Positions 6,928-23,400 of a DNA stretch of 64,000 bases are shown here, one piece after another (position 1 is the first letter of the stretch; each line of letters begins with the position of its first letter). The notes below the pieces were generated by a model. It searched no databases. It had not been told where the DNA came from and saw only the letters and a program-made list of their open reading frames with translations. This DNA comes from Sporocytophaga myxococcoides DSM 11118. GTDB lineage: Bacteria; Bacteroidota; Bacteroidia; Cytophagales; Cytophagaceae. The translations under genes and the position numbers were made by a program. Where the stretch lies: NCBI RefSeq assembly GCF_000426725.1, contig NZ_AUFX01000009.1, positions 310,001-374,000 on the forward strand, given 5' to 3'.

Positions 6928-7584
6928 TTACCATTCACTTAAAGGATAACAAGCATAGGGTTCAAATCCGGAAAAGCCTTTTACTAATTGAAGATTAACC
7001 CCGGAACTATTCCAATATCCTCCGCAAGTGGGGAGTAAATCAAAGGCCTCCTTATATTTTCCTGATTTAAAATATTCAATAGTTAATGTTAAATCAATCT
7101 CCGATCTTCTCCATTCATCTCCTATTTTATCACGAACTTCTTTAGCCAGATTAAATTCACCTTTGACTGCAAGCAGACCCGCTAGCTGCTCCCGATCGTA
7201 TTCTGTATTTGCGATAGCTATTGCTTTTTCAAAATTGTTCTCTAATAGTGGTAAGTAATAAGGAATAATATCTTTGATTGACTTTAGTCCTGCAAAAATT
7301 TCCTGATTGGTTATCTTAGCTATTTCTTTTGAAATTTGTTCTTTTAAAAATCCAATATCCTTTTCGTAGTATCTATTATTGCGACCTTTCACCGCTCCAT
7401 ATAACGCTCTTAGTTCATTGAATATGGCTATGTGTCCCAATAACAAGGATACTTCCATGCATTCCGTCAATTCAATGACACCTACATCATCAACGCCCTC
7501 TTGATACAATTTGAGATTCTGTTTTAGCAAAGCAGGTATTATATTTGTTGGGTTGTTAATATCTGGAATATATGTAGATAACAT
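6928..7584 (-). CDS. Hypothetical protein convergent to the RHS gene
   Basis: A 218-residue soluble protein with no signal peptide or recognisable motif. It is rich in amphipathic helices; two segments, KAIAIANTEYDREQLAGLL and YFKSGKYKEAFDLL, look like degenerate TPR-type hairpins. It starts at ATG 7584 and ends with EPYACYPLSEW. It lies tail-to-tail with the RHS polymorphic protein, 274 bp apart. Immunity genes normally sit directly downstream on the same strand, so an immunity role is possible only by proximity and is not supported by the orientation. Function unknown. Confidence 0.7.
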   Translation of the reverse strand: MLSTYIPDINNPTNIIPALLKQNLKLYQEGVDDVGVIELTECMEVSLLLGHIAIFNELRALYGAVKGRNNRYYEKDIGFLKEQISKEIAKITNQEIFAGLKSIKDIIPYYLPLLENNFEKAIAIANTEYDREQLAGLLAVKGEFNLAKEVRDKIGDEWRRSEIDLTLTIEYFKSGKYKEAFDLLPTCGGYWNSSGVNLQLVKGFSGFEPYACYPLSEW

Positions 7585-7965: not shown

Positions 7966-8190
7966 ATATGAGCAAGAGCAAGAAACCTTTTCTTTATCAT
8001 ATTTTAAAAATCTCTTACTCAAATTGTTGCTTATCTCTTTATGTAGTTACAAAGTTGACCAGATATATGAAGCATATACAAGGACCTTGCGTTCCTCAAT
8101 TCAAAGTAATCTTTGGTAAATCCATCTGGACATTTCACCTTTTTACACGTAAATTCACTTACATTAATTCTTGCATTAATATTGAAAATT

Positions 8191-10797
8191 ATGGCATATA
8201 GTAATTCTATTTTTAAGCTATCCCTCATTGCATTCATATTTAGCATTTTATCCTTGTCCAGTTATGGCCAGGAAGTTAGTACACTGGCTGGTAAGAGCAA
8301 TGATGCAGACGGGCCAGCAGATCAGGCCAATTTTGCCTCACCAAATGGTGTAGTAGTAGACGCTCAGGGAAATCTTTTTGTAGCAGATATTGCAAATCAT
8401 AAAATCAGAAAAATTACTCCTCAAGGAATTGTAAGTACTTTGGCTGGCTCCGGGTTTTCTGGTTATCTGGATGGAACAGGATCCGAAGCTATGTTCAATA
8501 CCCCTTGGGGTCTGGCACTAGACAAAGATGGAAATATATTTGTAGCAGAATTTGGTGGCCGAAAAGTAAGAAAAGTAACACCCGAAGGTATAGTAACAAC
8601 TGTGGCTAAAAGTCCTCCTGTTGGTGTGCAAACGTTTTATCAATCTACCGCATTGGTAGTAGATAATACAGGCAATATATATGTAGCAGACTATTCCTGG
8701 GTGACTAAAATTACTCCGGATGGAGTGGTTAGTAAATTAGCAGGTTCTGGTTCTGGTTTTAAGGATGGGCCAGGTGCTACGGCAAAGTTCAAAGAAATTA
8801 CAGGCATAACAATCGGTGCTGACAACAATCTATATGTAGTAGATAATGGCAACAATAGAATCCGTAAAATCACAGCTCAAGGTGAAGTAAGTACCTATGC
8901 TGGTTCTACTGCAGGAATAGAGAATGGAAATATAAGTGTTGCTACTTTTAGCAGACCTTATGGTATCACCATCGATAAGGAGGGCAACATGTTTGTAAGC
9001 GAAGAAACCAGTTTTTCGATTCGTAAAATTTCAACAACCGGAGAAGTAAGTACACATGCCGGTAACGGAGGCTTTGGATCACAAGATGGTCCTGCTGCCA
9101 GTGCCTCTTTTTATTATCCTCATGGTATTGCTGCAGATAGTTCCGGCAATGTCTATGTTGCTGATTTAAGCAATAAAAAGATACGTAAAATTTCTTCGGA
9201 AGGAATAGTAAGTACTGTAGCGGGAGTAGGCCAGGCTAATAATAATGCAGTAGTAGATGGACAGGGTTTAATGGCTAGGTTCACTATGCCAGCAGGAGTA
9301 GTAACTGATGCAATGGGCAATGTATATGTAGCAGAAACAGGCAGAGTTCGTAAAATTACCCCTGCGGGTAAAGTAACCACCCTGGCAGGATCAGGAAATA
9401 TGGGGCATTCAGATGGTATTGGGACTAATGCTACATTGGGCAGATTGACAGGTATAGCACTCGATGCAACTGGGAATGTATTTGTTTCAGATATACAATA
9501 TCATTTCATACGCAAGATTACTCCTGAAGGAGTCGTTAGCACTTTTGCAGGCAACTATTCTGGTTATACAGATGGCAATGGAATCGATGCCCGTTTCGAC
9601 AACCCATCCGCCCTGGCATTCGATGCTGCTGGCAATCTTTTTGTTACAGACCAGAGGAATTACTGCATACGTAAAATTACACCAAACGGAGACGCTTCTA
9701 CATTTGCCGGAATTGATACAGCAGGTTATAAGGATGGGAATGGAACCAATGCTCGCTTTGGAGAAATTACCGGTATTGCTATTGACAAGGATGGAAACAT
9801 ATTTGTGGCCGACAAAGGTAATAACTGCATTCGAAAAATTAGTCCGCAAGGAGATGTCACTACCTTTGCAGGTTCACGTGTCCAGGGTTCCGCCAATGGC
9901 ATTGGCATTAAGGCTTCTTTTTATTCACCTTACGGTATTTGCATAGACGCTTCCGGCAATTTATACGTGACCCAGGTAGGACCCGAGGTAGGAACTGAAA
10001 GTACTCTAATTCGAAAAATAACTCCATCTGCAGTTGTAACTACATTGGCAGGTACAGGACAAAGGGGAAATATAGATGGTCCCAGTGCTTCAGCCCGCTT
10101 TAACTATCCTAGCGGAATTGCTGTAGACACCAATTATAATATCTATATAGCAGATCAATACAATAATTTGATCAGGAAAATCTTTTTGCCTAATGAAATC
10201 CAGGTCATGCATGCAGATACAAATTTGGTTTCTGGCTTGGCACAGATAGATTTTGGGACAGTAAAAATTGGAAACTCCAGTACTGCATTTTCTTTCAATA
10301 TTGAAAATGAAGCCAGTGCTTTAAAGCCTGTTGCTTTGCTTGGAAAGCCTATCGTTAAGGTAAGTAGCAACGATTTCATTGTAGACCTTAGTAATACTTA
10401 TTCTCCAGTTGAAGTAGGCTTTCCTGCTGAATTTACCATAACGTTTAAACCAAGCACCGTTGGTACGAAAACAGCAACAGTGACCATTATAAACAACGAT
10501 TTGAATGAAAGTGTATATACTTTCGAAATCAAAGGTCTTGCCACTCCTTTTGTAGATGGCATTGAATCATCCAGTTATTCATCGGTGAGTTGTTATCCAA
10601 ATCCGGCAAGTTCAAGGGTAATTATAGAAAGCCCGGCGGAAATGTTGCTGGAAGTGTATTCTTCTGAAGGTAATAAGGTCATCGAACAAATGGTAGAGCG
10701 AGGAGAAAATAGTGTGAACATTGAAGCTCTTTCGAGAGGCTTATACTTATTCAATTTGCCATCAATAGGTCATAATATAAAGGTGATAAAAGATTAA
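8191..10797 (+). CDS. Secreted NHL-repeat beta-propeller protein with T9SS sorting domain (copy 1)
   Basis: 868 residues from ATG 8191. This start is chosen because MAYSNSIFKLSLIAFIF begins a clear signal peptide ending SSYGQ and aligns with the paralog at 10892; longer frames have no such signal. Twelve repeats of about 55 residues follow, each with an NHL core (GI/VxxDxxGNxYVAD...IRKITPEG) and a (V/I)STLAG turn, enough for two six-bladed propellers. Residues ~670-786 form an Ig-like choice-of-anchor/ASPM-type domain with the FTITFKPSTVGTKTATVTI signature. The last ~68 residues (SCYPNPASS...GLYLFNLP...IKVIKD) are a T9SS tail. It is probably cell-surface or released. The ligand is unknown. 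Confidence 0.9.
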   Translation: MAYSNSIFKLSLIAFIFSILSLSSYGQEVSTLAGKSNDADGPADQANFASPNGVVVDAQGNLFVADIANHKIRKITPQGIVSTLAGSGFSGYLDGTGSEAMFNTPWGLALDKDGNIFVAEFGGRKVRKVTPEGIVTTVAKSPPVGVQTFYQSTALVVDNTGNIYVADYSWVTKITPDGVVSKLAGSGSGFKDGPGATAKFKEITGITIGADNNLYVVDNGNNRIRKITAQGEVSTYAGSTAGIENGNISVATFSRPYGITIDKEGNMFVSEETSFSIRKISTTGEVSTHAGNGGFGSQDGPAASASFYYPHGIAADSSGNVYVADLSNKKIRKISSEGIVSTVAGVGQANNNAVVDGQGLMARFTMPAGVVTDAMGNVYVAETGRVRKITPAGKVTTLAGSGNMGHSDGIGTNATLGRLTGIALDATGNVFVSDIQYHFIRKITPEGVVSTFAGNYSGYTDGNGIDARFDNPSALAFDAAGNLFVTDQRNYCIRKITPNGDASTFAGIDTAGYKDGNGTNARFGEITGIAIDKDGNIFVADKGNNCIRKISPQGDVTTFAGSRVQGSANGIGIKASFYSPYGICIDASGNLYVTQVGPEVGTESTLIRKITPSAVVTTLAGTGQRGNIDGPSASARFNYPSGIAVDTNYNIYIADQYNNLIRKIFLPNEIQVMHADTNLVSGLAQIDFGTVKIGNSSTAFSFNIENEASALKPVALLGKPIVKVSSNDFIVDLSNTYSPVEVGFPAEFTITFKPSTVGTKTATVTIINNDLNESVYTFEIKGLATPFVDGIESSSYSSVSCYPNPASSRVIIESPAEMLLEVYSSEGNKVIEQMVERGENSVNIEALSRGLYLFNLPSIGHNIKVIKD

Positions 10798-10891
10798 TTC
10801 TACCACCACAATTGATTTTAATAATAATTTCAAAATTTCACCCTAATCAAAAAGATTACCAACATTATCAGATAGTATCCAAATACAATTT

Positions 10892-13492
10892 ATGAGACAT
10901 AATTCCATTTTTAAATTATCCATCATTGTTTACATTCTTGGCTTCTTATCCACTTCCGGCTATGGTCAGGTGGTGAGCACTCTGGCCGGTTTGAGTCTTG
11001 ATGCTGACGGTCCGGCAGCAATGTCCGGGTTTTCTTCACCTAATGGCGTCGCAATAGATTCTAAGGGAAATGTATATGTTGCAGAGGCAGACAATAACAA
11101 AATCCGTAAAATATCTGCACAAGGTATTGTAAGTACTTTTGCCGGAGATGGTGGTTGGGGAAAGCAGGATGGAGAAGGTAAGAATGCACGTTTTATGTAT
11201 CCATGGGGAATTGCAATAGATACTGAAGATAATGTATATGTATCCGAATTAGGTGGACACAGGGTACGCAAAATAACACCGGATGGCGTAGTGAGTACTT
11301 TAGCAGGAAATGGAGATGCCGGTAGCTTAGATGGAACAGGTACCGAAGCGAGATTTATTGCTCCAAGCAGTCTGGTGGTGGATGGCACAGGTACGGTGTA
11401 TGTTGCAGATACTCGGAATAATAAGATTCGCAAAATAACTCCAGAAGGTGTAGTGAGCACATTAGCAGGTAAAAACACTTCCGGATTTGCTGATGGTGCT
11501 GGCGCTGATGCTATGTTCAGCAACCCATCCGGGATAGCAATAGATGCCAATGGAAATTTATTTGTAGCGGATTATTATAATGATAAAATCCGAAAAATAA
11601 CGCCCGATGGTACAGTAAGTACCTTTGCAGGATCAACAGACGGACGAACTAATGGAGATTTGAGTGTAGCAAAGTTCAGTAACCCATATGGCATTGCCAT
11701 AGATGCAGAAGGCAATATGTATATAGGTGAAGAGGGCAATAATGTTATTCGTAAAATTTCAAAAGAAGGTATTGTTAGTACATATGCAGGCACGGGTGGC
11801 ATAGGAGATAAAGATGGCAATGCCACTAGTGCTAATTTTTATAATCCTCATGGTATTGCTGTTGATGCTGCCGGGAATGTCTATGTTGCTGATATTAGAA
11901 ATCATAAAATCAGAAAAGTAACACAACAAGGAATAGTAAGTACAATAGGAGGTATTGGTTATGCCAGATCAGTAGATGGTACTGTTCCCAATGTTCGATT
12001 TAAAAGCCCTACTGGTGTGACAATAAATGAGCAGGGTATTATTTATATAGCTGACGAGATCAAGATCCGTAAGCTGACTCCTGCCGGAGTGGCTACCACC
12101 CTTGCCGGTTCTGATAAATATGGCAGTTCAGATGGCACAGGAGCGGAAGCAACCTTTAATGATATAAAAGGTATTACAATTGATGCCATTGGAAATCTAT
12201 TTGTTACTGATGATCATAAAATAAGAAAAATTACTCCTGAAGGTATTGTTACCACCTTTGCCGGATCAGATACTGAGGGATTTGTCGATGGCAATGGCAC
12301 TGATGCTCTTTTTGACAATCCATTTGGATTGACTATTGATGCGAAGGGTAATCTTTATGTTGCTGACCAATACAATAACAGTATTCGTAAAATTACACCC
12401 AATGGAGATGTAAGCACATTTGCAGGTGCCAAGCAAGGGGGCTACAAAGATGGCAAGGGCTTGGATGCTCGCTTTTCATCACCTCATGGTATAGGTATAG
12501 ATAAAAACGGTAACCTCTATGTGGCAGATAAAAGCAACCATAGGATACGTAAAATTAATCCTGAGGGGGAAGTCTCTACATTAGCAGGTTCTATGTTTCA
12601 GGAATCCTGGGATGGTACAGGTGCCTCTGCAGCATTTAGTTCAGCAGTTGGTATTTGTGTAGATAGTTCAGACAATGTGTATGTAACTCAGACTGGAACT
12701 GCAAATTTTAAAATCAGAAAAGTAACGCCCTCGGGAGTTGTAACCACCCTGGCGGGAAAAGGAATCCCAGGCTCACTAAATGGTCCCGCAGCTTCTGTCA
12801 GTTTTAATAATCCTGTCGGAATTACGATCGATGCCAATTACAATCTATACGTAGCAGATCAATACAATTTTCAGATACGTAAAATTTCTCTGCCTAATGA
12901 TATAAAGGTATTGTATGCAGATAATGAAGTAGAATCACCAGTAGATTTTGGCACTGTAAAACCTGGTAAAACTAGTCCAGCTTTTACCTTCAGTATCGAG
13001 AACGGAACCGCTGCCTTGAAGCCCCTGTTTTTATCGGGCAAACCTTTGATTACCGTAAGCAGCAATGACTTTATTATAGACCTGAGCAATACTTCCTCTT
13101 CAGTTGGCTTTGGCGATTCTACTGAATTTTCAATAACCTTTAAACCAAGTACACTTGGCTTGAAAACAGCAACAGTGACAATACCAAACAACAATTTGGA
13201 CGGAATTGACTTTACATTTGAAATCAAAGGATTTTCCGCTCCATTTGTAGATGGCATTAGCTCATCCAGCTCTTCATTGGTAAGTTGTTATCCGAATCCG
13301 GCAAGTACCAGGGTAATTATAGAAAGCCCAGTGGAAATGTTGCTGGAAGTATATTCATCTGACGGAAATAAACTGATGGAGCAAATGATGGAAAGAGGTG
13401 AAAATAGTGTGAACATTGAAACTCTTTCAAGAGGCTTATACTTATTCAAAATGCCATTAATAGGAAAGAGTATAAAGGTGATAAAAAACTAA
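10892..13492 (+). CDS. Secreted NHL-repeat beta-propeller protein with T9SS sorting domain (copy 2)
   Basis: 866 residues, a paralog of the preceding gene with the same order: signal peptide (to STSGYGQ), twelve NHL-type repeats, an Ig-like domain (~670-790) and a T9SS tail (~799-866, SCYPNPASTRVIIESP...GLYLFKMP). The tails are almost identical at both protein and DNA level (AATCCGGCAAGT, GTGAACATTGAA), while the repeats have diverged more, so this is a tandem duplication. Spacing is 94 bp with no terminator seen between the copies, so they may be co-transcribed; a strong terminator follows copy 2. Confidence 0.9.
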   Translation: MRHNSIFKLSIIVYILGFLSTSGYGQVVSTLAGLSLDADGPAAMSGFSSPNGVAIDSKGNVYVAEADNNKIRKISAQGIVSTFAGDGGWGKQDGEGKNARFMYPWGIAIDTEDNVYVSELGGHRVRKITPDGVVSTLAGNGDAGSLDGTGTEARFIAPSSLVVDGTGTVYVADTRNNKIRKITPEGVVSTLAGKNTSGFADGAGADAMFSNPSGIAIDANGNLFVADYYNDKIRKITPDGTVSTFAGSTDGRTNGDLSVAKFSNPYGIAIDAEGNMYIGEEGNNVIRKISKEGIVSTYAGTGGIGDKDGNATSANFYNPHGIAVDAAGNVYVADIRNHKIRKVTQQGIVSTIGGIGYARSVDGTVPNVRFKSPTGVTINEQGIIYIADEIKIRKLTPAGVATTLAGSDKYGSSDGTGAEATFNDIKGITIDAIGNLFVTDDHKIRKITPEGIVTTFAGSDTEGFVDGNGTDALFDNPFGLTIDAKGNLYVADQYNNSIRKITPNGDVSTFAGAKQGGYKDGKGLDARFSSPHGIGIDKNGNLYVADKSNHRIRKINPEGEVSTLAGSMFQESWDGTGASAAFSSAVGICVDSSDNVYVTQTGTANFKIRKVTPSGVVTTLAGKGIPGSLNGPAASVSFNNPVGITIDANYNLYVADQYNFQIRKISLPNDIKVLYADNEVESPVDFGTVKPGKTSPAFTFSIENGTAALKPLFLSGKPLITVSSNDFIIDLSNTSSSVGFGDSTEFSITFKPSTLGLKTATVTIPNNNLDGIDFTFEIKGFSAPFVDGISSSSSSLVSCYPNPASTRVIIESPVEMLLEVYSSDGNKLMEQMMERGENSVNIETLSRGLYLFKMPLIGKSIKVIKN

Positions 13493-13518
13493 ATAGGGAG
13501 GATTAGAATCTTCAAGTT

Positions 13519-13567
13519 AATGCCATGTGGCGCGCGTTTTCGAATGGCGTGCCACATGGCATTTTAA
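13519..13567 (+). terminator. Strong terminator after the NHL pair
   Basis: Perfect 13-bp arms AATGCCATGTGGC (13519-13531) and GCCACATGGCATT (13551-13563), with further GC pairing inside and a short T-rich run after. It ends transcription before the REP/RAYT segment. Confidence 0.75.
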
Positions 13568-13583
13568 TTTATATTAATCAAAT

Positions 13584-13630
13584 GTCCTTGTTTTCGCAGA
13601 GGATTTCCAAGAATGGCGATTGTATCGCCA
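13584..13630. repeat. REP unit L1 (degenerate) left of RAYT
   Basis: A 47-bp unit in the same orientation as L2 at 13641, with a 57-bp period. The second hairpin GGCGATTGTATCGCC is intact, but the first one (CCTTGTTTTCGCAGAGG) has lost pairing. It is an older copy of the same REP. Confidence 0.75.
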
Positions 13631-13634
13631 GTCA

Positions 13635-13687
13635 TCAATAGTCCTCGTTTGCAACGAGGATTTCCGAGAATGGCGATTGTATCGCCA
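13635..13687. repeat. REP unit L2, left inverted repeat of the RAYT element
   Basis: CAATAG followed by a 47-bp unit made of two hairpins: CCTCGTTTGCAACGAGG and GGCGATTGTATCGCC. It ends 3 bp before the RAYT stop codon. The reverse complement recurs at 14284-14335 with only two differences in the unit; both are paired positions in the second hairpin (G-C here, A-T there). Confidence 0.85.
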
Positions 13688-13689
13688 TC

Positions 13690-14235
13690 TCAAATAACAC
13701 TCACCTTTACCAGCCCCTTTCTTCCTGCATAATCCCTGGCGCTGCTGTGTAAATAATATTCCGGATTCTCCACCAGTCCAGCGCGAACTGGATTATTATG
13801 TATGTAATTTATCTTTTCCATTATATCAATACTGGCTAGTTCAATAGCATGATTGCTATCCATCCATATTTTATAATTTTCAGCTCGTCTAGTTCTCTTT
13901 GCTTCAAAAGAAAACTTATCTTTCAACCATTCAGATCTGCTCTCATTAATAGAATCCATAGTTGTAATAAACTTCTTTGATGTATATTTCTTAAAATCTC
14001 TGAGAAACGAAGACATATCCCCTGGTGGCGAAGCTTTTAATGCCAAATGTATATGATTACTCATTATCACCCAAGCATAAATTGTAACATGCTTTTCCCT
14101 GGAACAATAATTTAAAGAATCAACAATGATATCACGGTAGTCTTTTCTGGTAAATAAATCTATCCATTTTATTACTGTACAGGTAATAAAATAAGGAACA
14201 TGTTGATCAGAAATGATGTATCTGTCTCCTGCCAT
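13690..14235 (-). CDS. REP-associated tyrosine transposase (RAYT, Y1_Tnp/IS200-like)
   Basis: 181 residues, the usual RAYT length. The family HUH motif is NHIHLAL at about residues 60-66 (His-x-His). The downstream conserved block KINYIHNNPVRAGLV near residue 145 is diagnostic of RAYTs, and the nucleophilic Tyr is expected in the helix before it. RAYTs are domesticated single-strand transposases that bind and cut REP hairpins and are thought to spread them. Here the gene sits between inverted REP units, L1 and L2 on the left and R on the right. The start MAGDRYIISDQHVPYFITC fits the family N-terminus. The gene looks intact. Confidence 0.9.
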   Translation of the reverse strand: MAGDRYIISDQHVPYFITCTVIKWIDLFTRKDYRDIIVDSLNYCSREKHVTIYAWVIMSNHIHLALKASPPGDMSSFLRDFKKYTSKKFITTMDSINESRSEWLKDKFSFEAKRTRRAENYKIWMDSNHAIELASIDIMEKINYIHNNPVRAGLVENPEYYLHSSARDYAGRKGLVKVSVI

Positions 14236-14283
14236 AGCTGTAAAAAAATTAGTTGGTTGAATTGCAAAAGTAATAAAATAAAT

Positions 14284-14335
14284 AGCGATACAATCGCTAT
14301 TCTCGGAAATCCTCGTTGCAAACGAGGACTATTGG
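14284..14335. repeat. REP unit R, right inverted repeat of the RAYT element
   Basis: Begins AGCGATACAATCGCT, continues with CCTCGTTGCAAACGAGG, and ends with CTATTG. It is the reverse complement of L2. The end pair of the first hairpin here is A-T instead of G-C, a compensatory change that keeps the stem. Confidence 0.85.
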
Positions 14336-14355
14336 GGACTATTGGGGACTATTGG
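14326..14355. repeat. Three tandem 10-bp repeats GGACTATTGG
   Basis: GGACTATTGG occurs three times head to tail. The first copy overlaps the outer end of REP unit R. On the minus strand the last copy reads CCAATAGTCC, and its CAA TAG supplies the final Gln and the stop codon of the NTPase gene that ends at 14349. Confidence 0.85.
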
Positions 14356-16943
14356 GATGATATTATTCTACATAGCCCTGCCCTTAAATCCTCTTCGACT
14401 TGTTTAAACTTTTTCTCTTTTATTTCCCCATTAAGGTATTGAATTTTAAGTTTATCATTTCTATCATATGAAGAAAAATTCGGATGTGGCCGAAAACCGT
14501 AATCACCAATTAATTTAGAAGAGTACTTTTCAATATGTTCCAGGGTAGTAGCATTCATAAAATCGTATTGATCTCTTTTTACATTCTTATACTTAGAACA
14601 TAAAGATAATATCTCCCTTGCCTTCGAAACTTGAGCGTGTGGAAACCCCATCTTAGCAAGTGATAATAGCTCTATATAAAGTATACTGACAAAATTAATT
14701 TTCACTTGATCATCTATAAACTCAACTATAGAAGTTAAGATGTTTACCATCTTTCGTATCTCTTCATACCTTTTCCTTTCTAAATTTTCAAGAAGATAAA
14801 AATATAAAATTTTAAAGTCTATGTCACTTAAAGTAAGCTTCATATAATTTTGATAAAAATAATTCACATAAAGAGGTGCAAATACAGTCCAATTGCTTAA
14901 AGGAGAAATAATGGTATAAATCCTAAATGCATTAAAAGTAGCTAAATTTGGGAAAGATTCATCCTGCATTTCAAATAAAGGTCTTATAACCTTTTGACAT
15001 AATTCATGCTCTCCTTTAGACAGTAATTGTATTGCTATTTTATAAATATAGACTTCTCTTTCCTCTGAATTTTCAAGTTTTATTATATAATTTAATAGAC
15101 TTTCAAAACCTTCTAACAATTCCATTCTATAAAGTTCATATAATAAAATATCAATTAATTCATGGGTAACAGATAATAGATTATTAATATTCGCTTCCTC
15201 AGGTTTATAGTTGTTCTTAATAATTAGATCTACAGTTTGTGTTAGCGCATTTTTCTTTTCAACATTATCTTCCTCTAACAACACCCATTTCAATAAAACC
15301 TGGGATTTTGATTCAAGCGGACAAACATCTAAAGCCTTCTTTATATATTCTTTCGCTATTAGCGAATCGTTTAATGACTCGAATAGCTGACATAAATTAT
15401 AATATGCGATCGTTAAAAACTTATCGCGTTCTGGATTAGATGATCTATTTAATTCTTCAATTGTTTGCGTATCAAAAGAAATTATCAATTCCTTATTCTC
15501 TTGATAATTTAATTGAAAATATGAACTACTTAAATTAACCCTAGACTGAAAATAGTACTTGCCTGAAGGATACTCATCTACTATTTCACTAAATACACGT
15601 ATGGCGTTTGGATAATCCCCAACTATTGCATAACTTATCCCTACCGCATATAATGTTTCATAGTAAGCTTCAGGAAAACCTTTCTTATCGTATTGAATTT
15701 TTAAGAGGAAAGGAATTGCCTTGCTATATTTTTGTGTTTCAAAATAACTAAAAGCAAGCGGCGCTATGTCATTTCCTGACAAATTCTCAATATCTTCGAT
15801 AGACCCTTCGTAAAGTTTAATTACTTCATTAAATTCTTTTGACGAGTATCTTTCCAATGCAAGTTTTAATACTCCCTTTTTCTTCTTCTCAACACTTTCA
15901 ATCCAAGATTCTGATAGTGCTTTATCTATAATCTTATTCTTAATTTCAATTTTTGATGATTGAAAGTCTGAATTAATAATTCCCGCTAAGTATAACTTTT
16001 TTTTAATTTCATCACTTAAGACATTTCCCTTATGATATCTGATTTGAACTATAGCCTGCCTAATTTCATTATCAATTTCAACTAACTCTCTAATATGATC
16101 AATGGGAGCTTTATCAAAAGCCGTTAGGTAAATATCTTCAATTATCCTGTCTATAAGACTTATATCGATATCATGTCCCTTCAAAATATAACTTTCAACT
16201 TCAGAGCATACATCATAGGTCATTCGAGGATTTCCGCTAGTCCAATCAAAAACTCTTAAAAGAATTTTTTCTGGCAAAATCAAATTAGCTTTCCTACAAA
16301 AATCATTAAACTCCCCATATGTAAAGTCGTTTAAGAAAATTTTCTGACCTATATTAAAAGGAGAAATTTTAGGATTTTTTATAATTTCCGTCGGCTCAAC
16401 AACACCAGAAAGAAGGTAGGTCAATCTATTATATTCAGTGAAATTAATTCTTTCAAAATATATACTTCTTATTTGAGCAAAAATTTCATCTGAAAATTTC
16501 GCCTTGGTCAAAGCATCAATTTCATCTAAAATTATTACTAACTTTCCTGAAATTGTTTTTAACAATAATCTTAGTTCTTGGCCATGCTCAGTATGCGGAG
16601 GAAGTAATTTCTTATTCCTATTATCTTCTATTACTTCATAAATTCCTCCAAAAGTTTCAAAGTTGGTTTCAACTGCTTTGTCAATAATTCCTCTAAAACA
16701 TTCTCTTGATGTTTCATAGGAATTTGAAAGATCAACATAAAGAAATATATCATTTTTAGTTTGAAGTTTACTTTTAGCATTAATAAGTAAATTAGTTTTA
16801 CCCATTTGCCTTGCAACTAAAACATATCCGGGCCTACCCATATCCTGAATTACTTGTAAAACTTGACGATCAGCATCCCTTTGAACATAGAGATGATCAG
16901 GAATAATTGTATATGGCTTTAATATTTTTTCTTGAGCAATCAT
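14349..16943 (-). CDS. AAA_35-like (STAND-type) NTPase with C-terminal helical repeats
   Basis: 864 residues. The N-terminus YVQRDADRQV followed by YVLVARQMGKTNLL (Walker A, ~44-51) is the signature of the AAA_35 'AAA-like' family. Walker B is LVIILDEID at ~136-144, and a sensor-type YLLSGVVEPTEI lies near 180. A lid/winged helix with SGNPRMTYDV follows. Residues ~350-850 are helical repeats of TPR type, for example YYETLYAVGISYAIVGDY and NAIRVFSEIVDEYP. Its ATG overlaps the stop of the upstream PNP-NTPase gene (ATGA), so the two are translationally coupled. In STAND proteins the repeats sense a ligand and the NTPase oligomerises. The stop codon lies inside the GGACTATTGG repeats, so the true C-terminus may have been altered by insertion. 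Confidence 0.8.
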   Translation of the reverse strand: MIAQEKILKPYTIIPDHLYVQRDADRQVLQVIQDMGRPGYVLVARQMGKTNLLINAKSKLQTKNDIFLYVDLSNSYETSRECFRGIIDKAVETNFETFGGIYEVIEDNRNKKLLPPHTEHGQELRLLLKTISGKLVIILDEIDALTKAKFSDEIFAQIRSIYFERINFTEYNRLTYLLSGVVEPTEIIKNPKISPFNIGQKIFLNDFTYGEFNDFCRKANLILPEKILLRVFDWTSGNPRMTYDVCSEVESYILKGHDIDISLIDRIIEDIYLTAFDKAPIDHIRELVEIDNEIRQAIVQIRYHKGNVLSDEIKKKLYLAGIINSDFQSSKIEIKNKIIDKALSESWIESVEKKKKGVLKLALERYSSKEFNEVIKLYEGSIEDIENLSGNDIAPLAFSYFETQKYSKAIPFLLKIQYDKKGFPEAYYETLYAVGISYAIVGDYPNAIRVFSEIVDEYPSGKYYFQSRVNLSSSYFQLNYQENKELIISFDTQTIEELNRSSNPERDKFLTIAYYNLCQLFESLNDSLIAKEYIKKALDVCPLESKSQVLLKWVLLEEDNVEKKNALTQTVDLIIKNNYKPEEANINNLLSVTHELIDILLYELYRMELLEGFESLLNYIIKLENSEEREVYIYKIAIQLLSKGEHELCQKVIRPLFEMQDESFPNLATFNAFRIYTIISPLSNWTVFAPLYVNYFYQNYMKLTLSDIDFKILYFYLLENLERKRYEEIRKMVNILTSIVEFIDDQVKINFVSILYIELLSLAKMGFPHAQVSKAREILSLCSKYKNVKRDQYDFMNATTLEHIEKYSSKLIGDYGFRPHPNFSSYDRNDKLKIQYLNGEIKEKKFKQVEEDLRAGLCRIISSQ

Positions 16944-18556
16944 TTAAATTCAGTCAGTGTTTCCTTTAAAATTCTATCAAGAGTCATATTGGGTTGATCA
17001 ATACAGACTATATAATCTCTGAAAATTCTTTTTATTAATCTAGGTGAACCTCCAGAAGCTTCAATTATTTGTTTCCTTTCAGGTTCTCCAAAAAGTAAAT
17101 TTAAGTTTTCAGAAATTATTTTAGCTAGACTCTCACAATCATTCTCACTCCATAAATCATATCTCAAAAACTTTATTTTTTCATAGATCTTTTTTTGACC
17201 GTCCACAATATGATCTGTAGGAGAAAGTAAAGAAGAAAAAATAAATTTTATATTCTCTTTATTTACCGTAATTATTAGGCTGAAAAATTGTTGAATTAAA
17301 ATTTTAAATGATTCTTCGCTATCAACTGGAATCTCTTCGATATAAATAAAATTTTCTTTAGAGGGGAAAGATGATTTTAAGAGTAAAGAGATTTCTTTTA
17401 TTATATCTCTTAAATTATCAAATCTTTTAGGAGAAGATTTAGGAGAAATATTCTGAATTAGGTCAACATAGATTTGACAAAATAACTCATTTATTGAACA
17501 CCCAATACAAGCTGCTAAATTTATGTAAACGAAACTTTTTCTTCTAATAATAAGATTACGAAGAATTGAAGTTGTTTTTCCGCATCCAGTTTCACCGCTT
17601 ACCCAAACACTGTAAAAATCAAGCACTTTTGAAAGATTCTTATCTTCTCCTCTTTCCAAATAAAACTTTTCTTTTTCTAAAGAATAAAAATCAAACAATA
17701 CTTCTTTAACTAGTTGTGTAGGAATTTGAATAGACTGACTCTTTTGAGGGATAAAACATAAGTCACTAAAAGCATTAGGGCTTGAGAGCACTAAATGCGC
17801 TAAAGATGTTGCTGATGCAGCAGCAAGATTCTGATTTTGATTTTTGTTTTTACCTTTATTACCATCAGCAAAATCACATATCCCCTTAACAACTATCCAT
17901 TCAAGTTTCTTATTTACTGATGCAGTACTCACTCCTATTCCTTCCATCTCTCCGCCTTTTGCATTGCGAAATGCACTTAACAACTGATCTCTATATTCTT
18001 TATTATCAATCAATTCTTCGCCTGAAAGCAATGGTCCAAAAATAGTAGAAGCTTTGTTATTTTCATCCACCTTAAAGTTCCAATTTTTTGCTTGACTTTT
18101 AAATCTGTCTAATAATATATGACCTGCCTCCGGATGACTTCCTCTATAAATAGTTTGTTCACCTACTCTTCTAACATTGTATGGGATCAGTGATTCAGAA
18201 ACCAAAACATCACCAATTTTTTGTGACATTTCATCTAATCCAAACGCGATTCCAATCATTATAACAGCCTTGGGATCCCAAATATCAATTGCCTCTTTGG
18301 TAGTTATTATTGAACTATTGGATGAAATAGACCCCATTGTTCCACACTGCACGTGCACAATTTGATATACCCCAAATACACCTATATAAAAAGTAAATTT
18401 ATCATTGAAAACTTTAATAACTTTATCATATCCATTTACCGGTTTAAGATATAAATGTAAATGATGAGTTTCTATTGAAGTAGCCGTTAAAATTAGAAAG
18501 CTTATGCTATTCTTTAATTTACTAATCTCCTCTAATGATTGTTCTAAATAATCCAA
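16940..18556 (-). CDS. Nucleoside phosphorylase/nucleosidase domain fused to a P-loop NTPase
   Basis: 538 residues. Residues ~17-256 are a PNP_UDP/MTAN fold: an early LILTAT strand, CGTMGS at 71-76, IGIAFGLD at 101-108, GGEMEG at 201-206 (ribose-binding Met-Glu) and KGICDFADG with Asp228 at the catalytic position. Walker A is SGETGCGKTT (~320-329), a Walker B-like FIYIEEIP lies at ~403-410, and GGSPRLIKRIF is a typical lid. Known PNP-type effectors in bacterial defence (e.g. Detocs) and in fungal NLR-like proteins act on purine nucleotides. That role here is inference. Translation must begin at TTG 18556: an in-frame TAA lies four codons upstream and the next Met is at residue 74. It is the first gene of a two-gene operon. 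Confidence 0.8.
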   Translation of the reverse strand: MDYLEQSLEEISKLKNSISFLILTATSIETHHLHLYLKPVNGYDKVIKVFNDKFTFYIGVFGVYQIVHVQCGTMGSISSNSSIITTKEAIDIWDPKAVIMIGIAFGLDEMSQKIGDVLVSESLIPYNVRRVGEQTIYRGSHPEAGHILLDRFKSQAKNWNFKVDENNKASTIFGPLLSGEELIDNKEYRDQLLSAFRNAKGGEMEGIGVSTASVNKKLEWIVVKGICDFADGNKGKNKNQNQNLAAASATSLAHLVLSSPNAFSDLCFIPQKSQSIQIPTQLVKEVLFDFYSLEKEKFYLERGEDKNLSKVLDFYSVWVSGETGCGKTTSILRNLIIRRKSFVYINLAACIGCSINELFCQIYVDLIQNISPKSSPKRFDNLRDIIKEISLLLKSSFPSKENFIYIEEIPVDSEESFKILIQQFFSLIITVNKENIKFIFSSLLSPTDHIVDGQKKIYEKIKFLRYDLWSENDCESLAKIISENLNLLFGEPERKQIIEASGGSPRLIKRIFRDYIVCIDQPNMTLDRILKETLTEFK

Positions 18557-18742
18557 GTTCTTTTCTTACTATTTAAAATCTTTATCAAAAATAAATTTCC
18601 AAAAAACTCTTTCAAATCTCCAAAAATATCCCCGTCAACAAATATATAAAATAATGTTACAACTTACGATATTCCTTTAGCTAAGTTACCTGAGACATAA
18701 ATATTTAACTTACCCTCCAAGTTACTCTTCTTTAGATTGATC

Positions 18743-18779
18743 AATCTTGACAAACGAGTCAGTGCAAGTCAAGATTTTT
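18743..18779 (+). terminator. Hairpin with T-run beside the 21-bp array
   Basis: AATCTTGAC (18743-18751) pairs perfectly with GTCAAGATT (18768-18776), followed by TTT. It reads as a plus-strand terminator, yet no plus-strand gene lies upstream, so its role is unclear. It may belong to the repeat array that follows. Confidence 0.5.
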
Positions 18780-18797
18780 ACAAAAAATATTTTAGGT

Positions 18798-18830
18798 CCT
18801 TGTCCAAATCGTACTGCCGCAGTACGATTT
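18798..18830. repeat. Left flank of the palindromic array
   Basis: CCTTGTCC then AAATCGTACTG-CCG-CAGTACGATTT, a perfect 11-bp-arm palindrome (18806-18830). A direct, degenerate copy closes the array at 19095-19125. Confidence 0.75.
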
Positions 18831-19082
18831 CGTAGTTCCGAGGTTCTCCATCGAACCTCTGAGGTTCGACGACGCACTTCCGAAGTACCTCATCGAACCT
18901 CCGAGGTTCGACGACGTAGTTCCGAGGTACTAAGTCGGACTTCAGAGGTTCGACGGAGTAGTTCCGAGGTACCAAATCGGACCTCTGAGGTTCAACGACG
19001 TACTTCCGAGGTGCTAAATCGGACCTCTGAGGTTCAAGGATGAAGTTCCGAAGTACAAAATCGGACTTCTGAGCTTCAGTGT
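18831..19082. repeat. Tandem array of twelve 21-bp palindromic units, alternating in type
   Basis: Twelve head-to-tail 21-mers with no indels. Odd and even units alternate: type A is like CGTAGTTCCGAGGTACTAA and type B like CGGACCTCTGAGGTTCGACG. Each has a palindromic centre (AACCTCTGAGGTT, TACTTCCGAGGTA, ACTTCCGAAGT). The real period is therefore 42 bp. Because 21 is a multiple of three, both strands show open heptapeptide frames (RTSEVRR on plus, EPQRSDL on minus) that begin only at TTG codons. I treat this as a DNA repeat and not as a gene. Confidence 0.85.
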
Positions 19083-19094
19083 GACATTTCATAC

Positions 19095-19125
19095 ACTTGT
19101 ACAAATCGTACCGCTACAGTACAAT
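19095..19125. repeat. Right flank of the palindromic array
   Basis: ACTTGTACAAATCGTAC then CGCTACAGTACAATT, a direct repeat of the left flank (18798-18830) with a few mismatches that weaken its palindrome. Confidence 0.65.
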
Positions 19126-19130
19126 TAAGA

Positions 19131-19330
19131 AAGTCTGAACTGGGATTTTTGGGATTATAGGATAGACAGGATTTTCTCGGAATTGTCTGAACTGGGAATT
19201 ATGGGATGAGGAGATATACAGGATTATCTCAGCAGAAGACAAAAAGATGTTGTCATATTTTCATAAAACTTCTTTCTTAATCAAAGACAATCCTGTCAAT
19301 CCTTTCATCCCCTATAATCCCAGTAAATTT
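19131..19330. repeat. Cluster of three dispersed ACTGGGATT...ACAGGATT repeats
   Basis: Two direct copies start with GTCTGAACTGGGA (near 19131 and 19187) and run through GGGAT...GGATAGACAGGATT. A third copy lies inverted at ~19285-19325 (AATCCTGTCAATCC...ATAATCCCAGT). A further inverted copy follows the next gene (20318-20380), and a faint one lies near 25811. They make up most of the spacer and place an artificial in-frame extension in front of the next gene. Confidence 0.7.
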
Positions 19331-19417
19331 CTGGCATTTTTATTGATTCACCCCAAAGCGTGTTTTTTTAAGTCCCGACTATGTGATATTTTAATCGAAC
19401 TATTCAATCTGCTAACT

Positions 19418-20296
19418 ATGAAAAAAGACTTTATCATTATCCTTTTTTTATTTTTCATTCCTGCTCTGTCTTTTGCTCAGGAAAACATTATAAACAGGGC
19501 ATTCCTCGGGGTAAATGGAAACTACTTTGTTCCTATCTTCGGATTTCAAAGAGAAAATTATAAATCAGGCCCGGGCATTTCCTTTTCTTATCTTTCAAAA
19601 AAACTTCCTGTATTTAAACAGCTCCCCTATTCTTTGAGAATCGGAGCTAATGTCGGAGTATCAGGACAGGGTTCTCGAGATTTTAATCTTACGGCTCACG
19701 ATAGCCTGAGAAGTGTTCAGCGTTTCTACAATACTTTTTCCTACTTCACACTCCTTGGGAGATTTACTTTTGAAAAAAACAAAATATTCAAACCGTACCT
19801 GGAACTTAGCTTCGGATTGGGCAACTTCTCATCGCATGAAAGTATATCCAGAAATTTGAATCCTTCTTTCTATAGTAAGCCCAGAGGTAATTATCAGGAA
19901 AGCATGTCTGTTTTCGGAATATCGGCGGGGTATCTTATTCAGGTTACCGAATGGTTTATGATTGATGCAAAAATAACTTACTACCAGGGCACGAAAAAAA
20001 CTGCTTTCACCGATCTTGATCATTTTTCATATTCAACGCCCTATTATTATCACACCAAAAGAGAAGCTGTACCTTCTTTAATTTCTGCACAGCTTGGGCT
20101 TTTATTCAGGGTACCACGACCAAGTATATCTATGAGTCCGCCAGAACCAACTGAGCGTCCTTCCAGGTTAACGCCTGTAATAAAACCTATAAAACCAAAA
20201 GAAAATAAAAACGGCGAGCTGGCTCCCGGCAACGAATCCACTCCCCAAAAGCCAAAGGAAACAAAAACGTTTTATGGTCCGAAGAAGCGACATTGA
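19418..20296 (+). CDS. Outer-membrane beta-barrel-type protein
   Basis: 292 residues from ATG 19418, where MKKDFIIILFLFFIPALSFAQ is a textbook signal peptide. A frame open from 19247 reads through the dispersed repeat and is not a credible N-terminus. The body has alternating aromatic/glycine strands (SLRIGANVGVSG, YFTLLGRFTF, PYLELSFGLGNF, WFMIDAKITYYQ), as in small OmpX/OmpW-like barrels, ending in LGLLFRVP. After it comes a Pro/Lys/Glu-rich periplasmic or surface tail (~250-292). Function unknown. It is convergent with the next gene through a shared terminator. Confidence 0.75.
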   Translation: MKKDFIIILFLFFIPALSFAQENIINRAFLGVNGNYFVPIFGFQRENYKSGPGISFSYLSKKLPVFKQLPYSLRIGANVGVSGQGSRDFNLTAHDSLRSVQRFYNTFSYFTLLGRFTFEKNKIFKPYLELSFGLGNFSSHESISRNLNPSFYSKPRGNYQESMSVFGISAGYLIQVTEWFMIDAKITYYQGTKKTAFTDLDHFSYSTPYYYHTKREAVPSLISAQLGLLFRVPRPSISMSPPEPTERPSRLTPVIKPIKPKENKNGELAPGNESTPQKPKETKTFYGPKKRH

Positions 20297-20317
20297 AGAC
20301 TAAACCGGGATGTATGG

Positions 20318-20385
20318 AATGAGGAGACAGACAAAGATAATCCTGTCTATCCTTTAATCCCCATAAATCCCAGTTCAGAATATTT
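20318..20385. repeat. Dispersed repeat copy, palindromic pair
   Basis: GGAATGAGGAGACAGACA (plus orientation) faces AATCCTGTCTATCC and CCCATAAATCCCAGTTCAGA (inverted orientation). It is the same family as 19131-19330. Confidence 0.65.
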
Positions 20386-20396
20386 AATCTATGAAT

Positions 20397-20440
20397 AAAA
20401 AAAGTGGCTCATCTTCTCAGACAAGCCACTTCTATTTATT
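20397..20440. terminator. Bidirectional terminator between convergent genes
   Basis: AAGTGGCT (20402-20409) pairs with AGCCACTT (20424-20431), with an A-run before and a T-rich run after. It serves the beta-barrel gene on plus and the large T9SS gene on minus. Confidence 0.7.
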
Positions 20441-20464
20441 CTTTATTAATCTTATCTACCTCTA

Positions 20465-23400
20465 TTACTTCTTTATAACCCTTCTGTGAGTGCTTCCCTT
20501 TGAAGTTGTGATTGACAGAATATAAACACCTGGTTTGATTGCCCCTGTTGAAAAAGTCATTTTATTTAAACCTGACATCAGTGATATACTTTCATCTTCT
20601 ATGACAGCCAAACCAGACAATGTTCTCAGAGATAGTTTTGCATCTTCTTCATCAGACATTACTTCAAAGTTAAGTATATCATCAGAAAAAGGATTAGGAT
20701 AAATTTCAAGCATACTCACGGCTTCCCTCCTATCTATTGATGAAATCATTTTAGTTCCGACAATCACTTCTTTTACTACTGAACATCCAGATGTATTACT
20801 TACTCTTACTTCATAAGTACCAGGACATAAATCATTATGTGACCGGGATGAAGAAAGTCCTTTATTCCACAAATAAGTTATTGTACCGCCAGAGGTATTA
20901 ATCACATTTACAGTTGCGATTCCATTGCAGAGGCCTTCTGTAGCAGAAGCTGTATCAATGGAAACTGTCATCATGTTATTTCCCTTTTTGACGCTCCAGC
21001 TTTTAGTTAAGGTGCATCCTTTATCATCTTTAACAGTTACCGAATATGTACCGGAAGAAAGTCCGGTCAGATCCTCTGTTTTAGCATCACTGCTCCATGA
21101 GTAGGTATAAGGAGCACTTCCTCCTGAAGCTGATACATCAACTGCTCCATTTCCGCCGGCACAAGATTCATCTGTTACTGTTCCTGTCAGCTTCAAAAGA
21201 GAACAGTCAGGAACTATGACCACTTTATAATCTTCCGTTTCTCCCTGAATAGCAGTAGTGCATGGATCTACCAGATAAGACGCAGTTGCATTCATCATTC
21301 TTACCCGCATCACTGTTTCTCCCAAAAGTGTATTTGACGGCAAAGAAAAATAATAGGTAGATGTTCCGGCTCCGGCTACATTACCAAACATTCTTTCTGT
21401 TGAATTATCAAATATTCCATCCTGATTAAGATCTATCCATACTGCAAAGTAATCTGTTCCGCTTCCTCCGAATACGGTAGTCAGACCATAGTTTTTTCCT
21501 ACAGTTAAATTCGTTTCGAATGTATTGTAATAATCTGTGTACGATGGTCCGCCGTAATATCCGCTATTGCTGTTATTGATAGTATTCAGAATAATAGTCT
21601 GTATATAGTTGCCTGTAGTTGTACCTTTAGAATATGCAGGAACACAATAGGGTTTGCATACCTTAATTTTATTCACTTTGATTATTACAGAATCACTCGC
21701 TGAGCAATCTCCATTTGATACAACAACTTTTACCTGATACTCGCCTGCGTTAGTATACTTATATGAAAACTCGTTTCCTGAAGCTGCAAATGCTCCGTTT
21801 ATATACCATGAGAAATTATAATTATCTGGATTCGGAATTTTAAATATATACTCCTCTCCCTGACAGACAGCAGGGACATCATCCAATACAATTTCCGGAG
21901 GAGTAACAAAGCTGACAGATACTGTATCTCTTGCTATTGTCCCACAGCTATTCTTTACTTCCACCCAATAATCTCCGGAAGAAGATACTGTAATTCCTGA
22001 AGTAGTCTCTTTTGTTGACCAAACGTATGAATAACCCGAGCCAGATGCATTGAGGTTAACCAATGCCCCTGCACAAGCAATTTTATCATTTCCAATATTC
22101 AAGACTGGTTTGGGACAAATAACTTTAACAGAATCACAGATCCTGATTTGTCCACAAGTATTATCAGTAGAAAGACATACGTTGTATACTCCTGAACTTT
22201 CATATCTGTGAACAACCTCTTTGCCGGATGCTGTAGTGCCATCCCCCAAATCCCAGTTCAGGAATGTTGCTGAAGGTGCATTGTAATTCAAAACAACGTC
22301 AAGAAGAGTATCTTTAACACTAAACCTATCGGGTTCACCTATGCATGCTGCATTTATTGATTTTCGGACAGTGTCTTTACTACAGCCATTGTCAACCACA
22401 AGTGTAACAATGTAGTTTCCCTGTTTTTCAAATGTATGTCTGTAATCCTGATCAGTTGCAGTGCTCCCATCTCCGAAATTCCATTGCCATGTGAATGCAG
22501 AGCTGCCAGTTTTATTAAACTTACTATTATCTTTAAACAAAATAGTAGCACCTGTCTGATCACTTTCTCTTTCTGTAACGAAATCGGCAACAGGTCTTAT
22601 ACAGGCATCGCTATCCAGCACTAATAATAAGAGATCTTTAGAAGTTGAATTTGAAGCATTAGAAACGCCAGAGACAATAAAAGAACCATCTGAAGTCTTA
22701 TTAAAATAGGTGATTTTATCAACATTATCAGTACCGAAACTATTTGATGTCCGAATATTATAGTTTTCATCAAGGAGTATCGTATTAATGTCTGCATCAG
22801 ATCCGGCGTTAGTTGTAGAACCTAAAAGAATTATACGTCCGGATTTATTTTGTACCATACCATTAATAAATCCTGTTCCTGGCAATGTTTTGGTCCAGAT
22901 AGTATCAAGATTAAAATTAGTTTTTACAAGCCAGGTACTACTTCCATTTTCTCCCGTAAAATTTACAGGAAAAAGAAACCCGTCAGTTTGTTCAATGATT
23001 GCAGGAATAGAACTAGTGCTGTTCGCAAGTGATGAAGGATGATGAAAATATTTATGTAATAGTGCAGTGCCATTCGCATCTATCTTTCTTACAAAACCAT
23101 CACCCATGCCTCCATAAACGAATATGTCTCCGGTGGAAGATTCATGCACTCCGTTAACCACTCCATCATAGATTATAAAACCATTTCTCCAGATTTCCTC
23201 TCCGTTCTTATTTACCTTTATAATCCCTAAAGTATTGGTGGATATACCAAATTGTTTATTTGGGAAAATATAATTACCATCTGAAGTTTCCAATATCTTT
23301 CCGACACTAAAATCCCAACAGCAGATGCCTGAATAGGTAATTGTTCTTTCGGTAATAATATTTCCGTTTTTATCAAACCTCCACAAATTCACTTCTTCAT

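What the first reader, a model, noticed from the sequence alone, without database searches (positions are those of the whole stretch)
14349..18556. Translationally coupled PNP-NTPase and AAA_35-repeat NTPase pair, a candidate two-gene defence system
Seen: the first gene fuses a nucleosidase fold, with ribose-binding GGEMEG and catalytic-position Asp228 kept, to a P-loop NTPase. The second is an AAA_35-like NTPase with about 500 residues of helical repeats. Their stop and start codons overlap (ATGA). Known: PNP domains act as effectors in bacterial Detocs and in fungal NLR-like proteins, and STAND NTPases sense phage proteins. Inferred: the repeats of the second protein detect a trigger, and joint NTPase activation switches on nucleotide cleavage by the first. 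Having NTPase domains in both partners is not an arrangement I recognise from named systems.
Basis: partly seen in the sequence, partly recalled or inferred. Interest (0 to 1): 0.78.

Follow-up and report, generated by a model that had tools for sequence, protein, structure and literature searches.

The report
Two-protein bacterial immune switch candidate
Two neighbouring bacterial genes, each with its own ATP-driven switch, stay together in distant bacteria, with an exchangeable enzyme on the first and variable repeats on the second, so they look like an uncatalogued two-part alarm, probably against viruses.

Summary
Gene 1 (16940-18556, -) is an MTA/SAH-nucleosidase-like PNP domain fused to a P-loop NTPase; gene 2 (14349-16943, -) is an AAA_35 NTPase with TPR-like repeats; they overlap by ATGA. 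Scans with gene 2 alone found 31 further loci; all 31 have gene 1, or its remnant, directly upstream. Among 30 gene-1 proteins the NTPase is constant while the N-terminus is PNP (18), alpha/beta-hydrolase (9) or trypsin-like protease (3). The three protease loci also carry the upstream MBL gene known from Avs1, Lamassu and Hachiman. The two NTPases are homologous and both keep their ATP-binding motifs. Gene 2's switch is conserved, its repeats are not. PADLOC matched gene 2 in 0 of 30 and the isolated gene-1 NTPase only marginally. Best reading: an effector-exchanging, two-protein STAND-like alarm in which gene 2 senses and gene 1 executes, probably through mixed NTPase assembly. The arrangement has precedents: nSTAND2 two-gene operons in print, and tandem AAA_35 genes found here on plasmids of three other phyla. 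So it is a new variant of a known kind. The gene-1 model has the MTA/SAH nucleosidase fold; phage defence, substrate and assembly are inferred.

The parts
16940..18556 (-). Gene 1: PNP-type nucleosidase fused to a P-loop NTPase (538 aa, TTG start)
17789..18493 (-). PNP_UDP_1 domain, residues 22-256; Glu29, Glu203-Met204-Glu205 and Asp228 invariant in the 18 PNP-type proteins aligned; MTA/SAH nucleosidase fold in the predicted model
17012..17698 (-). Gene-1 NTPase module, about residues 287-515: YxxRxxD-like start, Walker A GxxGxGK[ST] (30 of 30), [ED]E Walker B (30 of 30), G[SN]PR-like motif (mostly)
16940..16943 (-). ATGA overlap of the gene-1 stop and gene-2 start; in relatives a possible gene-2 start codon lies within -8 to +32 nt of the gene-1 stop in 30 of 30 measurable loci
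14349..16943 (-). Gene 2: AAA_35 NTPase with TPR-like repeats (864 aa)
16221..16895 (-). AAA_35 NTPase, residues 17-241: [AS]RQMGKTN and DE[IV]D in 30 of 30 proteins aligned
14484..15848 (-). TPR-like repeat region, about residues 366-820, mean pairwise identity 17-22% against 58% in residues 1-200: putative sensor
14352..14483 (-). C-terminal cap, residues 821-864, conserved again (37% mean identity; present in 29 of 30 proteins aligned); role unknown

Best explanation
A two-protein, STAND-like intracellular alarm with exchangeable effectors. Gene 2 is the sensor: its fast-changing repeats bind a trigger, most likely a phage or other invader molecule, and its AAA_35 NTPase switches state. Gene 1 is the executor: it has no sensor repeats but carries a homologous NTPase, through which it joins the activated sensor, probably as a mixed oligomer. 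Assembly brings together and activates the N-terminal enzyme. In the window that enzyme is an MTA/SAH-nucleosidase-like domain which, with its catalytic residues kept, most likely splits the base from a purine nucleotide such as ATP and stops growth. In relatives the same chassis carries an alpha/beta-hydrolase (membrane or lipid attack likely) or a trypsin-like protease that would activate the MBL pro-nuclease encoded just upstream. Shown: the pairing, operon layout, effector exchange, homologous NTPases with intact motifs, nucleosidase fold by prediction, conserved catalytic residues, variable repeats, patchy distribution. Inferred: the trigger, mixed assembly, substrate and phage protection.
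For: Pairing: 31 of 31 loci found with gene 2 alone (L032 holds a cut and L042 a broken gene 1). Over 395 genomes with the same handles, gene 2 (E 1e-10) and the gene-1 NTPase profile single out the same two (298 and 342 bits; next 33.5). Effectors on one NTPase: PNP 18, hydrolase 9, protease 3 of 30. PADLOC relates these N-termini to defence effectors: 18 of 30 to 'Effector PN-superfamily', others to LmuA or Avs2. MBL gene in 3 of 3 protease loci. NTPases homologous: hhalign probability 98.2, E 3.9e-14, 196 columns; motifs intact in 30 of 30 of each. Gene-1 model: MTA/SAH nucleosidase fold, TM 0.87 to 4gmh. Distances of the two genes correlate: Mantel r 0.90 overall, 0.78 within PNP type. Switch conserved, repeats variable. 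Patchy: 1 of 19 genomes of the family, the window's own; absent at the same site in the two congeners examined.
Against: P0002 has no match at 1e-10 in 50,697 phage records; no trigger is known and nothing was tested on phage. The trees need only 2 effector changes (long branches make the gene-1 tree unsure), so exchange looks rare, not rampant. The Mantel correlation shows shared descent, not contact. Gene 2 and the complex were not modelled, and the gene-1 model has pTM 0.53, so domain placement and oligomers are unverified. The closest solved relatives are housekeeping nucleosidases; ATP as substrate is by analogy. Flank genes were scanned without a control. Low G+C is also found elsewhere in the window. 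Distant AAA_35 pairs partly carry HTH-like rather than killing N-termini, which suits regulation as well.
Confidence: 0.6

Rival explanations
1. A STAND-type signalling or cell-fate pair not aimed at phage: gene 2 senses an internal or social signal and gene 1's enzyme adjusts nucleotide pools or triggers programmed death.
For: Distant tandem AAA_35 pairs occur in Cyanobacteriota, Chloroflexota and Abditibacteriota with HTH-like N-termini in some first genes and WD40-like or other long C-termini in second genes. No P0002 match in phage records.
Against: The effectors here are shared with Lamassu, Avs and other defence models; two copies lie on viral contigs; the pair is patchy and sits at a variable site.
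Confidence: 0.2
2. The PNP domain makes a signal (free base or sugar phosphate) that activates another effector rather than emptying a nucleotide pool.
For: This role is predicted for PNP domains in other conflict systems (PMC7159879, passages).
Against: No obvious second effector gene adjoins the pair in the window (by eye; neighbours were not scanned against families); hydrolase and protease replace the PNP, and the only regular extra gene I saw is the MBL that fits the protease.
Confidence: 0.12
3. A toxin-antitoxin-like pair in which gene 2 merely restrains a constitutively active gene 1.
For: Adjacency and tight coupling.
Against: Gene 2 is large, with an intact NTPase and variable repeats; both NTPases keep their motifs in 30 of 30 proteins aligned, which a simple antidote would not need.
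Confidence: 0.08

Closest known systems
nSTAND2 two-gene operon (PMC8195603, section 15, read)
   Same: Mobile two-gene operon, a STAND NTPase in each gene, variable effector fused to one of them, proposed mixed ring.
   Different: There the effector-bearing NTPase is eroded and effectors are mostly GT4 or HEPN. Here both NTPases keep their motifs (30 of 30), effectors are PNP, hydrolase and protease, and gene 2 is AAA_35 with TPR. The nSTAND2 match of P0002 is below Pfam's cut-off (11.9 against 24 bits).
Tandem AAA_35 pairs found here; possibly the Npun2340/2341 STAND family (name seen in a PMC8195603 passage; link to AAA_35 recalled, not tested)
   Same: AAA_35-type NTPases in adjacent genes; the upstream gene short with a variable N-terminus, the downstream one long.
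   Different: Distant: the best plasmid hit outside this family has 123 bits against 362 for Sphingobium. First-gene N-termini are HTH-like, TIR or other; the first gene still matches the gene-2 profile (20-79 bits), whereas here gene 1 has diverged more.
AVAST (Avs)
   Same: Effector, STAND NTPase and variable repeats; the protease type shares the MBL gene and protease of Avs1.
   Different: Sensor and effector are two proteins, each with an NTPase; no PADLOC Avs model matches gene 2 (0 of 30).
Lamassu
   Same: Some hydrolase and protease gene-1 proteins and the MBL proteins match LmuA models.
   Different: Gene 2 is AAA_35-TPR, not LmuB; no PADLOC match.
MBL nuclease-trypsin pair (PMC12799240; opening text, passages and section 4 seen)
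   Same: Protease-type relatives (3 of 3) have the MBL gene overlapping the protease fusion.
   Different: The chassis is none of the four named there (Hachiman, AVAST, Lamassu, DRT); its fig. S2C lists further loci that I could not see. The window's PNP type lacks the pair.
Detocs and other PNP immune effectors (recalled, not read)
   Same: PNP-fold nucleosidase as effector.
   Different: Here fused to an NTPase and paired with an AAA_35 protein; no receiver domain in either protein.

Membership tests
PNP_UDP_1 / MTA-SAH-nucleosidase-like fold | Match above Pfam cut-off, conserved EMEG and Asp, and the fold | tested here: met
   49.9 bits against 25.1; Glu203, Met204, Glu205, Asp228 invariant 18 of 18; profile to 4gmh 7.5e-17; model to 4gmh TM 0.87 by target length, E 1.3e-16
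PNP_UDP_1 / MTA-SAH-nucleosidase-like fold | Purine pocket able to bind a nucleotide | tested here: inconclusive
   The fold matches include adenine-bound MTA/SAH nucleosidases, but the pocket was not inspected or docked
AAA_35 (PF14516) | Gene 2 matches the family | tested here: met
   53.7 bits against 27; 30 of 30 at E up to 0.01
STAND NTPase class | ORC/CDC6-like NTPase with winged-helix part and oligomeric switch | tested here: inconclusive
   G[NS]PR-like motif and repeats fit; weak nSTAND6 and nSTAND2 matches; oligomers not tested
nSTAND2 two-gene operon | PF20702 above cut-off | tested here: not met
   P0002 11.9 bits against 24; 2 of 30 relatives at E up to 0.01, best 0.0018
nSTAND2 two-gene operon | Effector-bearing NTPase eroded | tested here: not met
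   Walker A and [ED]E intact in 30 of 30 gene-1 proteins
Lamassu | LmuB SMC-type partner in the second gene | tested here: not met
   0 of 30 gene-2 proteins match any PADLOC model at E 0.001
AVAST | Avs STAND protein model | tested here: not met
   0 of 30 gene-2 proteins; the Avs2 match of L047 gene 1 lies on its protease part, residues 15-214
Detocs | PNP protein with receiver-type domain (definition recalled) | tested here: not met
   No receiver match in either protein at E up to 1; neighbours not scanned
MBL nuclease-trypsin pair | MBL gene directly upstream of the protease fusion | tested here: met
   3 of 3 protease-type relatives (L047, L048, L055), genes overlap, LmuA-MBL model to 3.9e-96; not in the window's own PNP type

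The most novel reading that the evidence does not exclude
A bacterial counterpart of paired plant immune receptors: a sensor NTPase and a separate executor NTPase, descended from one family and both nucleotide-competent, co-assemble to fire an exchangeable effector. This pair would be the defence-armed branch of a broad, uncatalogued class of tandem AAA_35 receptors across Bacteroidota, Pseudomonadota, Chlorobiota, Cyanobacteriota, Chloroflexota and Abditibacteriota.
Probability: 0.4. Interest if true: 0.75.

Novelty: new variant of a known kind. Interest (0 to 1): 0.57.

Why it matters
If right, sensing and killing in a STAND-type immune receptor are split between two proteins that each keep an NTPase, so assembly order, ATP use and effector choice can be studied separately, as in paired plant receptors. 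It adds a further host chassis for the mobile MBL nuclease-protease pair, and it offers a search handle (tandem AAA_35 genes) on a group of receptors for which the one defence catalogue available here, PADLOC 2.0.0, gave no match (gene 2, 0 of 30).

Tried and rejected
Filing under a known system: PADLOC matched mainly the N-terminal effector parts of gene 1. One LmuA model spans L047 gene 1 at residues 5-421 (6.3e-40), which could have made it Lamassu; the NTPase modules scanned alone (10 modules) gave no LmuA match and only marginal others (PDC-S59 to 5e-5, typeIV_RecD to 1e-5), so I rejected it, though that model's own C-terminus was not seen. nSTAND2 by genome search rang in 0 of 247 genomes and in none of 14 controls, so that search shows nothing by itself. 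A viral scan with the gene-1 NTPase alignment was not possible (no conserved stretch). The Aeromonas gene 2 has no DNA match in E. coli genomes and P0002 none in phage records. Frequent effector swapping was rejected: both trees need 2 changes (the gene-1 tree carries a long-branch warning). In one search, 160 of 395 genomes pass E 0.001; apart from the two true genomes the best has 33.5 bits, and I set these aside as noise (many are 450-520 aa frames, DnaA-like by my guess). The flank scan used 101 of the 204 flank ORFs of at least 150 aa, has no control, and showed only the first 25 of 243 families, so it is not used as proof. Rows left out: A3 lacks L032, L042, L053 (gene 1 cut, broken, duplicate of L028); A4 lacks L038, L044, L053 (gene 2 cut, ending early at 703 aa, cut). 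Literature: searches (listings with abstract starts) and passages of the four papers opened showed no description of this pair; most subscription journals are not held, and supplements were not seen.
Full report
Observation. Gene 1 carries a PNP_UDP_1 domain (residues 22-256, 3.5e-13) and, by Pfam, only a weak trace of an AAA domain; gene 2 carries AAA_35 (1.9e-14) and TPR repeats. In a solved MTA/SAH nucleosidase (3bl6, 1.7e-9) the Asp aligned with Asp228 and the EME of the EMEG stretch are the same. A profile of 18 PNP-type proteins finds that family at 7.5e-17. The predicted gene-1 structure (18 sequences, mean pLDDT 87.3, pTM 0.53) has a PNP-like half, a weak linker near residues 273-275 and an alpha/beta NTPase half ending in helices. 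Its best solved matches, all 50 rows shown, are MTA/SAH nucleosidases or the related futalosine hydrolase, TM up to 0.87 by target length, some of them adenine-bound. Glu29, also invariant, stands where these enzymes have a catalytic Glu (recalled, not aligned here). The pair is A+T-rich (30% G+C in 14001-18000 against 39-41% in 8001-14000 and 36-38% in 18001-22000), but so are other parts of the window, such as 50001-60000.

Conserved pairing. P0001 has one full-length relative among 395 genomes drawn from the phylum besides itself (G223, 43%; 16 of 395 pass E 0.001, most through PNP alone), and in the window's family only the window's own genome of 19 has a match. P0002 finds the same two of 395 at E 1e-10, in G223 beside gene 1. 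A profile of the gene-1 NTPase over 395 genomes gives 342 and 298 bits for these two and 33.5 for the next. One scan of genome contigs with a gene-2 alignment gave 29 loci (of 78 pattern matches) and one of viral contigs gave 2 (of 269). In all 31 a gene-1 ORF or its remnant ends next to gene 2 on the same strand. In L032 gene 1 is cut by the contig end, in L042 it is split between frames, in L053 gene 2 is cut; L028 and L053 have identical gene-1 proteins by eye, so I count 30 distinct; L030 is the G223 locus again. In 30 of 30 measurable loci a possible gene-2 start lies within -8 to +32 nt of the gene-1 stop. By record title, hosts are Bacteroidota, Pseudomonadota, one Chlorobiaceae MAG and one MAG labelled Mycoplasmataceae. 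A Sphingobium plasmid carries a hydrolase-type pair (L005).

Effector exchange. Of the 30 gene-1 proteins in A3 (28 loci, the window and L005), 18 have PNP, 9 an alpha/beta-hydrolase with a nucleophile-elbow serine ([VI][AC]HSxGG, 9 of 9), and 3 a trypsin-like protease with His, Asp and Ser stretches. Pfam agrees in part: PNP_UDP_1 15 of 30, DUF676 8, Abhydrolase_6 8, Trypsin_2 2 at E 0.01. PADLOC: 18 of 30 match PDC-M60C and Effector PN-superfamily, 3 one LmuA model, 3 another, 2 Avs2. In the 3 protease loci a third gene overlaps gene 1 upstream; it is an MBL-fold protein matching LmuA (best 3.9e-96), RTasMBL and Avs1a models. This is the nuclease-protease pair of Tuck et al. (PMC12799240; opening text, passages and section 4 seen), in which a protease fused to a defence protein activates a pro-nuclease. 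Effector type follows the trees of both NTPases, with two changes, so the exchanges look few.

Two homologous switches. Profile comparison of the gene-1 NTPase with gene 2 gives probability 98.2, E 3.9e-14 over 196 columns. Gene 1 keeps GxxGxGK[ST] and [ED]E in 30 of 30; gene 2 keeps [AS]RQMGKTN and DE[IV]D in 30 of 30. The genome scan selected on LYV[QD]RDAD and [DE]MGRPGY[VI]; the viral scan selected on RQMGKTN and IILDEID themselves, so for its two rows these motifs are not independent evidence. Distances in the two proteins correlate (Mantel r 0.90, n 28; 0.78 within 17 PNP; 0.72 within 8 hydrolase), which shows joint inheritance rather than contact. Gene 2 is 58% identical on average in residues 1-200, 17-22% in the repeats and 37% in the last 44 residues: a constant switch with a variable sensor.

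Surroundings. The right-flank gene (about 19332-20333) is in 4 of 4 genomes of the genus, the own one included. The two congeners whose site I fetched (of three) lack the pair there and hold other genes and transposases. A RayT-like transposase beside gene 2 is 99.3% identical in one of them. Flanks of relatives include matches to AriA, PtuA, Old, AbiLi, restriction enzymes and integrases (101 flank proteins), without a control set.

What is known. PADLOC 2.0.0 matches mainly the N-terminal parts of gene 1 (one LmuA model runs on to residue 421 of L047), gene 2 in 0 of 30, and 10 isolated gene-1 NTPases only marginally. Kaur et al. 2021 (PMC8195603, section 15 read in full; passages) describe a mobile operon of two nSTAND2 proteins, one eroded and fused to GT4 or HEPN, thought to form a mixed ring. 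That is the same principle, but that domain is below cut-off here, neither NTPase is eroded and the effectors differ. Of the 38 plasmid records with a distant or near P0002 match I looked at 9 distant ones of my choice (models). Six have a short gene with an AAA_35-like domain (20-79 bits) and a different N-terminus (HTH-like, TIR or other) directly upstream; L089 has a second long AAA_35 gene upstream; L093 has one downstream beyond a transposase; L092 has none. So the tandem arrangement is wider than this family.

Mechanism. The most economical reading is a sensor (gene 2) and an executor (gene 1) that join through their NTPases when the repeats meet a trigger, activating the enzyme on gene 1. 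Adjacency, homology of the switches, retained motifs, effector exchange and variable repeats are shown. The trigger, mixed assembly, ATP (or another purine nucleotide) as substrate and protection from phage are inferred. Gene 2 was never accepted for structure prediction, so the interface is untested.

Verdict. Real, conserved, not matched as a pair in the one defence catalogue available, and with clear precedents for its principle: a new variant of a known kind.

Noticed in passing
L086-L094 (plasmids of Cyanobacteriota, Chloroflexota, Abditibacteriota): Tandem AAA_35 genes: 6 of 9 loci looked at have a short AAA_35-like gene with a variable N-terminus (TIR-like in L088, HTH-like in L086 and L091, by eye) directly upstream of a long AAA_35 gene.
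   Followed up: partly
window 50476-60431: A second A+T-rich cluster that looks conflict-related by eye: a DUF262/GmrSD-like protein (50476-52158), a Ser/Thr kinase-like protein (52168-53604) and a P-loop NTPase (54291-55769) (names recalled, not scanned).
   Followed up: no
window 13647-14337: RayT-like (REP-associated, by eye) transposase unit beside gene 2, 99.3% identical in congener G017 while the flank gene is 91% identical: probably mobile recently.
   Followed up: partly
window 8113-13492: Two adjacent, 60% identical large NHL-like repeat proteins; a search with the second finds 23 matches in the own genome.
   Followed up: no
window 18763-19077: Short imperfect repeats upstream of gene 1, about 80% alike to a stretch near the orthologous site of congener G017.
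   Followed up: no
L042, about 5300-6996: Fibrisoma limi: gene 1 is split between two reading frames, the PNP part in one and the NTPase in another, while gene 2 is open; error, decay or something regulated is unknown.
   Followed up: no
L044 2440-4551: Novosphingobium gene 2 ends early (703 aa) although the contig goes on; decay, error or a short sensor is unknown.
   Followed up: no
L008 244-2540; L022; L010 916-2328: Other PNP fusions: PNP with a different C-terminus plus an overlapping second gene (L008), PNP with another P-loop NTPase (L022), HNH-like plus PNP near an AAA-like protein (L010) (by eye).
   Followed up: no
P0002 residues 821-864 (window 14352-14483): Conserved cap (GRNxxVxVxYxxG...KxKKVExDIxxGxC) after the variable repeats, present in 29 of 30 proteins aligned; a possible fixed contact or ligand site.
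   Followed up: no
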